Of a stretch of 64,000 bases of DNA, positions 57,816 through 58,490 are shown piece by piece. Under the pieces are notes generated by a model, which made no database searches, was not told the DNA's origin, and was given only the letters and a program-made list of their open reading frames with translations. A program made the translations under genes and the position numbers. The DNA is from Malus domestica (lineage: Eukaryota > Streptophyta > Magnoliopsida > Rosales > Rosaceae): assembly GCF_042453785.1 (NCBI RefSeq), contig NC_091668.1, positions 875,501 through 939,500 of the forward strand, written 5' to 3'. Every line of letters begins with the position of its first letter. Positions within the stretch are counted from its first letter, which is position 1.

Positions 57816-58490
57816 ATGTCTGGACCCTCCGACCGTCGTTTTGACTTGAACCTTGGAGAAGAGACAGCCACGCCTTCTCCAGACAACATATGGCGCCCAT
57901 CCTTCATATCCCCTACTGGTCCCCTTACCGTTGGGGATTCTGTGATGAAGAATGATATGACCGCTGCAGTGGTGGCCAGGAACCTTCTCACTCCCAAAGA
58001 TAACAGACTACTTTCCAAACGGTCTGATGAGTTGGCTGTTAAGGACTCTCTGGCTCTTAGTGTTCAGTGTGCAGGTTCTGTGTCTAATATGGCCCAACGC
58101 CTATTTGCTAGAACCCGCCAAGTTGAATCATTGGCTGCTGAAGTGATGAGTCTCAAACAGGAGATTAGAGGGCTCAAGCATGAGAATAAGCAGTTGCACC
58201 GGCTCGCCCATGACTATGCTACAAACATGAAGAGGAAGCTTGACCAGATGAAGGAATCTGATGGTAAGGTTTTACTTGATCATCAGCGGTTTGTGGGTTT
58301 GTTCCAAAGGCATTTATTGCCTTCGTCCTCTGGGGCTGTACCTGGTAATGAAGCTTCAAATGATGAACCTCCAATGCCTCCTCCTTCTGGGGTTTTGTCA
58401 AGTACTGAGGCTCCGGATAACCACCCTCCGGTGCTTTCTCTTTCTGGGGCTCTACCGACTGCTGAGACTTCCCCTAAGCAACCTTTGTGA
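57816..58490 (+). CDS. Antisense ORF (aORF) of the Tat-type retrotransposon
   Basis: 224 residues, intronless, on the strand opposite gag-pol and between integrase and the 3' LTR. The first true ATG is 57816 (a TTG lies two codons before). It opens 'MSGPSDRRFDLNLGEE'; 'DLNL' resembles an EAR-like repression motif. Residues about 90-145 are strongly helical with heptad-like spacing ('VESLAAEVMSLKQEIRGLKH'), a likely coiled coil. The C-terminal third is Pro/Ser-rich with three imperfect repeats of about 19 residues ('SSSGAVPG', 'PPSGVLSS', 'SLSGALPT'). An AATAAA follows at about 58558. Extra ORFs in this position, some antisense, are known from plant Tat elements (e.g. Grande); their function is unknown. 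The reading frame is clean although gag-pol around it is broken. Confidence 0.6.
   Translation: MSGPSDRRFDLNLGEETATPSPDNIWRPSFISPTGPLTVGDSVMKNDMTAAVVARNLLTPKDNRLLSKRSDELAVKDSLALSVQCAGSVSNMAQRLFARTRQVESLAAEVMSLKQEIRGLKHENKQLHRLAHDYATNMKRKLDQMKESDGKVLLDHQRFVGLFQRHLLPSSSGAVPGNEASNDEPPMPPPSGVLSSTEAPDNHPPVLSLSGALPTAETSPKQPL

What the first reader, a model, noticed from the sequence alone, without database searches (positions are those of the whole stretch)
57816..58490. Clean antisense ORF inside a decayed Tat-type retrotransposon
gag has a frameshift, integrase has a stop, and PR-RT-RNase H are gone, yet the opposite-strand 224-codon ORF is open from ATG to stop. It has a DLNL motif, a coiled coil, tandem C-terminal repeats, its own possible TATA and an AATAAA. 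Antisense extra ORFs are known in the Tat lineage but their role is unexplained. An EAR-like motif plus coiled coil would suit a protein that binds a co-repressor; that is inference.
Basis: partly seen in the sequence, partly recalled or inferred. Interest (0 to 1): 0.7.

Follow-up and report, generated by a model that had tools for sequence, protein, structure and literature searches.

The report
Antisense accessory gene of plant retrotransposon
A jumping element next to a plant tubulin gene carries, on its opposite strand, a small intact gene for a long coiled-coil protein; the same protein is encoded unchanged at dozens of places in this genome, so it is the accessory gene of a recently multiplied family rather than a lone survivor in a dead element, and what it does is still unknown.

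Summary
The 224-codon ORF at 57816-58490 (+) is real and antisense to gag and integrase, between integrase and a 521-bp 3' LTR. Chance is unlikely: 12 of 1,200 surrogates held an ORF this long, and its three-base periodicity exceeds all 1,267 background windows. "Clean ORF in a decayed element" misleads twice. Two point lesions in the remaining gag and integrase predict an unbroken 675 bp with probability about 0.6. And the genome search scored 150 full-length copies, 98 tied at the identical-protein score and 147 without a stop: a recently amplified family. Eight of those copies plus the window differ at 5 synonymous and 0 amino-acid sites, while the upstream flank has 33 variable sites in 905; but they were ranked by protein similarity, so this does not prove selection. 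Best explanation: an antisense accessory ORF of the Tat/Retand kind, with a predicted 108-residue helix, a Pro/Ser-rich tail and no Transposase_28 match. The EAR co-repressor idea is weak: FDLNL is present, but both defining consensus forms fail. Whether copies share the gag frameshift, integrase stop and pol deletion was not tested; the genome server stopped answering.

The parts
57816..58490 (+). antisense accessory ORF (aORF), 224 codons, 24.4 kDa: predicted disordered 1-43 with FDLNL at 9-13, low-confidence helix 44-56, long helix 60-167, Pro/Ser-rich tail 168-224
57699..57705 (+). TATAGAG, possible weak TATA element 117 nt before the ATG; kept in 9 of 9 copies compared (window + L001-L008)
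57533..57676 (+). 65-bp tandem repeat, 2.2 copies, just upstream of the possible promoter; exact-string count of its junctions is 2 in seven, 0 in one and 3 in one of the 9 copies
58558..58563 (+). AATAAA, candidate poly(A) signal 68 nt past the stop; kept in 9 of 9 copies compared
55119..55639 (-). 3' LTR, 521 bp, TG...CA; polypurine-type stretch directly inside it; 5-nt left flank GATAG is a candidate target-site duplication (the other end lies beyond the window, so not verified)
61295..62407 (-). integrase (Integrase_H2C2 and rve domains), one in-frame stop at 61880-61882
62400..64000 (-). gag (Retrotrans_gag) open in two frames that overlap at 63404-63497 (frameshift); runs off the window
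59214..59930 (.). [quoted passage not shown]
60507..61037 (.). 14-bp tandem array, about 37 copies, next to the integrase end

Best explanation
The ORF is the antisense accessory gene (aORF, also called eORF-3'R) of a Tat/Retand-type Ty3 LTR retrotransposon. Shown: place, orientation, coding signal, and dozens of identical-protein copies in this genome. Predicted: the fold outline. Inferred: it is transcribed from an internal promoter just upstream, as reported for maize Grande gene23, and makes a protein whose long basic helix forms a coiled-coil oligomer between two acidic, disordered ends; it most likely acts in the nucleus, in trans, as a scaffold or regulator of the element's own RNA or DNA. 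This copy carries it intact because the copy is young and the target small, not because this copy is under selection. My odds are about 0.85 for identity and about 0.35 for a nuclear, protein-level regulatory role; the figure given is for identity together with protein-level function of some kind.
For: Position and orientation between integrase and 3' LTR; pol-3'LTR region of about 5.65 kb with tandem arrays, as described for Retand in PMC11963269. Coding periodicity confined to the ORF within the pol-3'LTR region. 150 scored copies, each covering 224/224 residues at 99-100% identity, 98 (window included) at the top score, on contigs C1 to C17 (my count of rows). In 9 compared copies the 5 variable ORF sites are synonymous while the upstream flank has 33/905 and the downstream 27/349 variable sites. 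Promoter-like and AATAAA motifs kept in 9 of 9. Helix prediction.
Against: No Transposase_28 (PF04195) match in the aORF or in 10 of the 24 other stop-free pieces of at least 70 aa in the region (all 5 on the + strand, 5 of 19 on the -), and no other match above a family's curated cut-off. The 8 copies were ranked by protein similarity, so absence of amino-acid changes is partly built in. Codon scores do not favour the frame, and codons 1-85 alone show only weak periodicity. No expression data. FDLNL and the repeats could be accidental. Lineage rests on architecture: RT and archaeal RNase H, which define it, are missing from this copy.
Confidence: 0.6

Rival explanations
1. The protein is a co-repressor recruiter: FDLNL binds TOPLESS- or SAP18-type co-repressors, the coiled coil makes it multivalent, and it represses the element's own LTR or nearby host genes.
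For: FDLNL at residues 9-13 in a predicted disordered N terminus; [LF]DLN[LF] arises in 22 of 20,000 shuffles. PMC6479872 (passages) says 160 of 280 rice DLN motifs conserve nothing but DLN.
Against: LxLxL and DLN-x(1-4)-P both absent. PMC9956375 found only 5 of 65 DLNx(x)P-containing motifs outside the C-terminal region; this one is N-terminal. DLN alone is common: 2,112 non-transposon rice proteins; 1,580 of 20,000 shuffles hold DLN. No DNA-binding domain found.
Confidence: 0.08
2. The antisense transcript, not the protein, matters: it pairs with the sense element RNA, feeding or dampening small-RNA silencing; the ORF is incidental or ancestral.
For: PMC7264820 (read) offers this for antisense aORFs in general. 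The 3' region of the sense RNA would be complementary.
Against: Coding periodicity and only-synonymous changes in the copies compared; a protein explains both, though the second is biased by how the copies were ranked.
Confidence: 0.15
3. Truncated derivative of the usual long antisense protein: the Transposase_28 half was lost and a C-terminal coiled-coil half remains, now with no function.
For: 97% of Retand clusters encode Transposase_28 in antisense, and 11 Smc-type domains were found in antisense ORFs (PMC11963269); here only a coiled coil is seen, and no Transposase_28 trace in 10 of 24 other stop-free pieces.
Against: Own ATG, own stop and AATAAA at fixed offsets in 9 of 9 copies; that study counted 104 antisense ORFs but only 57 with Transposase_28, so antisense ORFs without it are ordinary; PF04195 was found in only 23% of Retand elements in PMC6317226.
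Confidence: 0.15
4. Chance ORF or a captured single-copy host gene.
For: No family match above cut-off.
Against: 12 of 1,200 surrogates reach this length; periodicity beyond every background window; 150 scored copies across the genome rule out a single-copy host gene.
Confidence: 0.02

Closest known systems
Grande gene23 (maize), antisense accessory gene between pol and 3' LTR
   Same: place, antisense orientation, a possible own upstream promoter; gene23 as summarised in PMC7264820 (read)
   Different: sequence not compared (original paper not held); nuclear localisation and promoter are reported for gene23 and only inferred here
Retand-lineage antisense ORFs with Transposase_28 (PMC11963269)
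   Same: long pol-3'LTR region with tandem arrays and antisense ORF; LTR of 521 bp and region of about 5.65 kb fall within the published ranges of 315-1,194 bp and 2,933-6,566 bp
   Different: no Transposase_28 match here; [quoted passage not shown]
eORF-3'R of plant Ty3/gypsy elements (PMC6317226)
   Same: 3' place, reverse orientation; extra ORFs of Ty3/gypsy fall in 314 groups, so one without family matches is ordinary
   Different: that survey used a 250-codon minimum, so an ORF of 224 codons would not have been counted
HODOR high-copy apple repeat
   Same: a high-copy LTR element of apple, given as 9.2 kb in PMC6901071 and 9,716 bp in PMC13334179 (passages)
   Different: not compared in sequence; reported as gathered at putative centromeres, while identical aORF copies here include places near a contig start (for example C2:22798, C1:207301)

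Membership tests
Tat/Retand Ty3 LTR retrotransposon | archaeal-type RNase H between RNase H and integrase; RT phylogeny | not testable with these tools
   no protease, RT or RNase H found in this copy; stretches of other copies could not be fetched (server unanswered)
Tat/Retand Ty3 LTR retrotransposon | gag and integrase domains present on one strand, gag first | tested here: met
   Retrotrans_gag, Integrase_H2C2, rve
Tat/Retand Ty3 LTR retrotransposon | long region between pol and 3' LTR with tandem arrays and antisense ORF | tested here: met
Retand antisense ORF with Transposase_28 | PF04195 match | tested here: not met
   no match at E up to 10 in the aORF or in 10 of 24 other stop-free pieces of the region
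antisense aORF / eORF-3'R (position class) | ORF between pol and 3' LTR, opposite to gag-pol, kept in most copies of the family | tested here: inconclusive
   place and orientation met; without a stop in 147 of 150 scored copies, but those are the best by protein score
EAR repressor motif | LxLxL or DLNx(x)P | tested here: not met
   definition from PMC9956375
coiled-coil protein | long helix with heptad hydrophobic pattern | tested here: met
   predicted helix 60-167, block pLDDT 94-98 over residues 91-150; heptad score reached by 13 of 500 shuffles; prediction only

The most novel reading that the evidence does not exclude
The amplified family is non-autonomous: its copies share the broken gag-pol seen here, borrow gag and pol from other elements, yet have kept only the antisense gene intact under purifying selection. 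That would mean the accessory protein has to come from the element itself (in cis or cis-preferring) even when all classical retrotransposon proteins are borrowed, and would give a clean selection test for an antisense aORF, with the dead gag and integrase of the same copies as built-in neutral controls.
Probability: 0.2. Interest if true: 0.75.

Novelty: new member of a known kind. Interest (0 to 1): 0.42.

Why it matters
Antisense accessory genes of plant Tat/Retand elements are described as having no known function (PMC7264820, PMC11963269). A genome with 98 scored copies coding for the identical protein, beside recognisable gag and integrase remnants in this copy, allows a direct selection test inside one genome. 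If the copies share the broken gag-pol, the aORF would be the only gene the family kept, which would make its role testable.

Tried and rejected
Transposase_28 sought in the aORF and in 10 of 24 other stop-free pieces of at least 70 aa: none. NCBIfam and PDB: only weak matches, all in or near the coiled-coil part. Relatives in viral contigs by aORF: no pattern match; by integrase: 3 pattern matches, none confirmed; in bacterial and archaeal genomes by aORF: 33 pattern matches, none confirmed. Codon log-odds did not separate the reading frame from the other frames. The C-terminal repeats are too short and diverged to test selection. A fold search was not run: a single helix matches too much. 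The thought that an open ORF in a broken element shows selection was rejected by the lesion count. A lone domesticated gene was rejected by copy number. Papers: among the 12 of 17 papers listed and the 10 of 16 listed, none held both an antisense-ORF or aORF term and the EAR term; those searches see open-licence PMC papers only.

Full report
What is there. The window's right end holds a Ty3-type LTR element on the - strand. From right to left: gag in two frames (63404-64000, then 62400-63497), integrase (62407 down to 61295, with one in-frame stop at 61880-61882), a region of about 5.65 kb with two large tandem arrays, and a 521-bp 3' LTR at 55119-55639. Pfam finds Retrotrans_gag, Integrase_H2C2 and rve, and nothing for protease, RT or RNase H in the four longest pieces scanned. 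The 5' LTR lies beyond the window. On the + strand, antisense to all this, lies the ORF of the finding: 57816-58490, ATG to TGA, 224 codons.

Is it more than chance? [quoted passage not shown] for the whole window in 1 of 60. Three-base periodicity is 8.87, against a mean of 0.98 and a maximum of 3.94 in 1,267 overlapping windows of stretches that I took as non-coding without checking them for genes. It stays beyond the background maximum when the C-terminal repeats are cut off (4.64 against 3.41) and is at background level in both flanks. The signal is uneven: codons 1-85 alone give 2.50, reached by 3.0% of background windows, codons 86-168 give 3.43 (0.5%), and the C-terminal part 8.53. A codon log-odds score was high for the segment, but with both training sets some other frame scored higher than the ORF's own. 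I take it as a real protein-coding ORF, in origin at least.

Does openness mean selection on this copy? No. The gag and integrase remnants in the window span about 2.7 kb and carry two point lesions; at that rate an unbroken 675-bp ORF is expected with probability 0.61.

The genome changes the picture. The whole-genome search answered once. The window lies at C8:875501-939500 of a 651-Mb genome with 19 contigs; the scored hits lie on C1 to C17. This fits apple (17 chromosomes and the near-equal size of a published Golden Delicious assembly are recalled, not from a call), but no name was given, so apple is inference. All 150 scored hits cover 224 of 224 residues at 99-100% identity. By my count of the rows, 98, the window's own included, tie at the top score of 486.4 bits, and 147 of 150 have no stop (3 have one TAG). 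The first look had 10,207 candidates, of which only the best 150 were scored, so 150 is a lower bound for copies and the sample is the most similar end of the family. The element's aORF is therefore one of a recently multiplied set, not a solitary relic.

A first, biased look at selection. Eight of these copies came with 1.5-kb flanks. Each encodes exactly the window's protein and differs from it by 1 or 2 synonymous bases. Across the 9 copies the ORF has 5 variable sites, all synonymous, in 161.7 synonymous sites; the upstream flank has 33 in 905 sites and the downstream flank 27 in 349 (columns with gaps dropped, which removes much of the upstream tandem repeat). Synonymous sites thus vary about as much as the upstream flank, and at that rate 18.6 amino-acid-changing variable sites would be expected where 0 are seen. 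But the copies were ranked by protein similarity, so zero is partly built in. By a hand estimate from the mean upstream pairwise difference of 1.1%, an unconstrained copy would carry about 3 amino-acid changes and stay identical with a chance near 5%, so 98 identical copies would need some 1,800 copies of like age; this cannot be excluded. I count it as suggestive only.

Anatomy of the protein. Mass 24.4 kDa. A single-sequence AlphaFold model has disorder at 1-43, a low-confidence helix 44-56, one helix 60-167 with block pLDDT 94-98 over residues 91-150, and a disordered tail (mean pLDDT 69.2, pTM 0.35). The middle part 44-167 is basic (pI 10.0), both ends acidic (pI 4.2 and 4.1). The best heptad score is reached by 13 of 500 shuffles. 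The C-terminal repeats are weak. No family match above a curated cut-off was found and only weak PDB matches (best E 0.39); in particular no Transposase_28, nor in 10 of the 24 other stop-free pieces of at least 70 aa in the region, which include all 5 on the + strand. The weak TATA-like TATAGAG at -117 and AATAAA 68 nt past the stop are kept in 9 of 9 copies; since these copies are close relatives, conservation of short motifs says little.

The EAR idea. FDLNL at residues 9-13 fits the first five positions of the ERF-type motif L/FDLNL/F(x)P (PMC6479872, passages) and is rare in shuffles (22 of 20,000). But the consensus forms LxLxL and DLNx(x)P (PMC9956375, abstract and passages), even allowing up to four residues before the proline, are not met. 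The motif is a lead, not membership.

What is known. [quoted passage not shown] PMC11963269 (first three of five parts read) reports antisense ORFs in all recently active Retand clusters studied and Transposase_28 in 97%; function unknown, regulatory role suggested. PMC6317226 (passages) reports Transposase_28 in 23% of Retand elements and 314 groups of Ty3/gypsy extra ORFs. PMC11197308 (passages) lists Retand among the Gypsy clades of apple 'Gala'. The present ORF fits this known kind as a member without Transposase_28.

Best reading. An antisense accessory gene of a Tat/Retand-type family, coding for a probably oligomeric coiled-coil protein, most likely with a nuclear role in the element's own cycle (by analogy with gene23; inferred). 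Lineage is by architecture, because the defining RT and RNase H are missing from this copy.

What stayed open. Whether other copies share the gag frameshift, the integrase stop and the gag/integrase junction decides between an amplified non-autonomous family and private decay of this copy. I tried to fetch 20 stretches and to run the integrase and gag searches, but the server did not answer again. Nothing in this report rests on those requests.

Noticed in passing
55640-55730 and 58694-58783: 91-bp direct repeats, 82% identical, bracket the aORF and its upstream region: one directly inside the 3' LTR, the other past the aORF's AATAAA; a second pair at 55886-55937 and 58798-58848 (75%). The aORF module may have come in or been duplicated by recombination near the polypurine tract.
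   Followed up: partly
55851-55883: A 33-bp piece 85% identical to the inner end of the 3' LTR (55606-55638) lies again 212 bp further inside the element, as if a second LTR end had once been there.
   Followed up: partly
62406-62427 and 62468-62489: A 22-bp stretch occurs twice, exactly, 62 bp apart and nowhere else in the window, at the gag/integrase junction where protease to RNase H are missing; it may be a copied-in filler at the deletion.
   Followed up: partly
52172-54719: A beta-tubulin gene on the + strand (recognised by eye from the translation; no search was run on it) has its stop codon 400 bp before the 3' LTR, so the element sits just past the 3' end of a host gene.
   Followed up: no
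[quoted passage not shown] alignment breaks and gaps in the first array's neighbourhood in several of L001-L008 suggest that array length differs between copies.
   Followed up: partly
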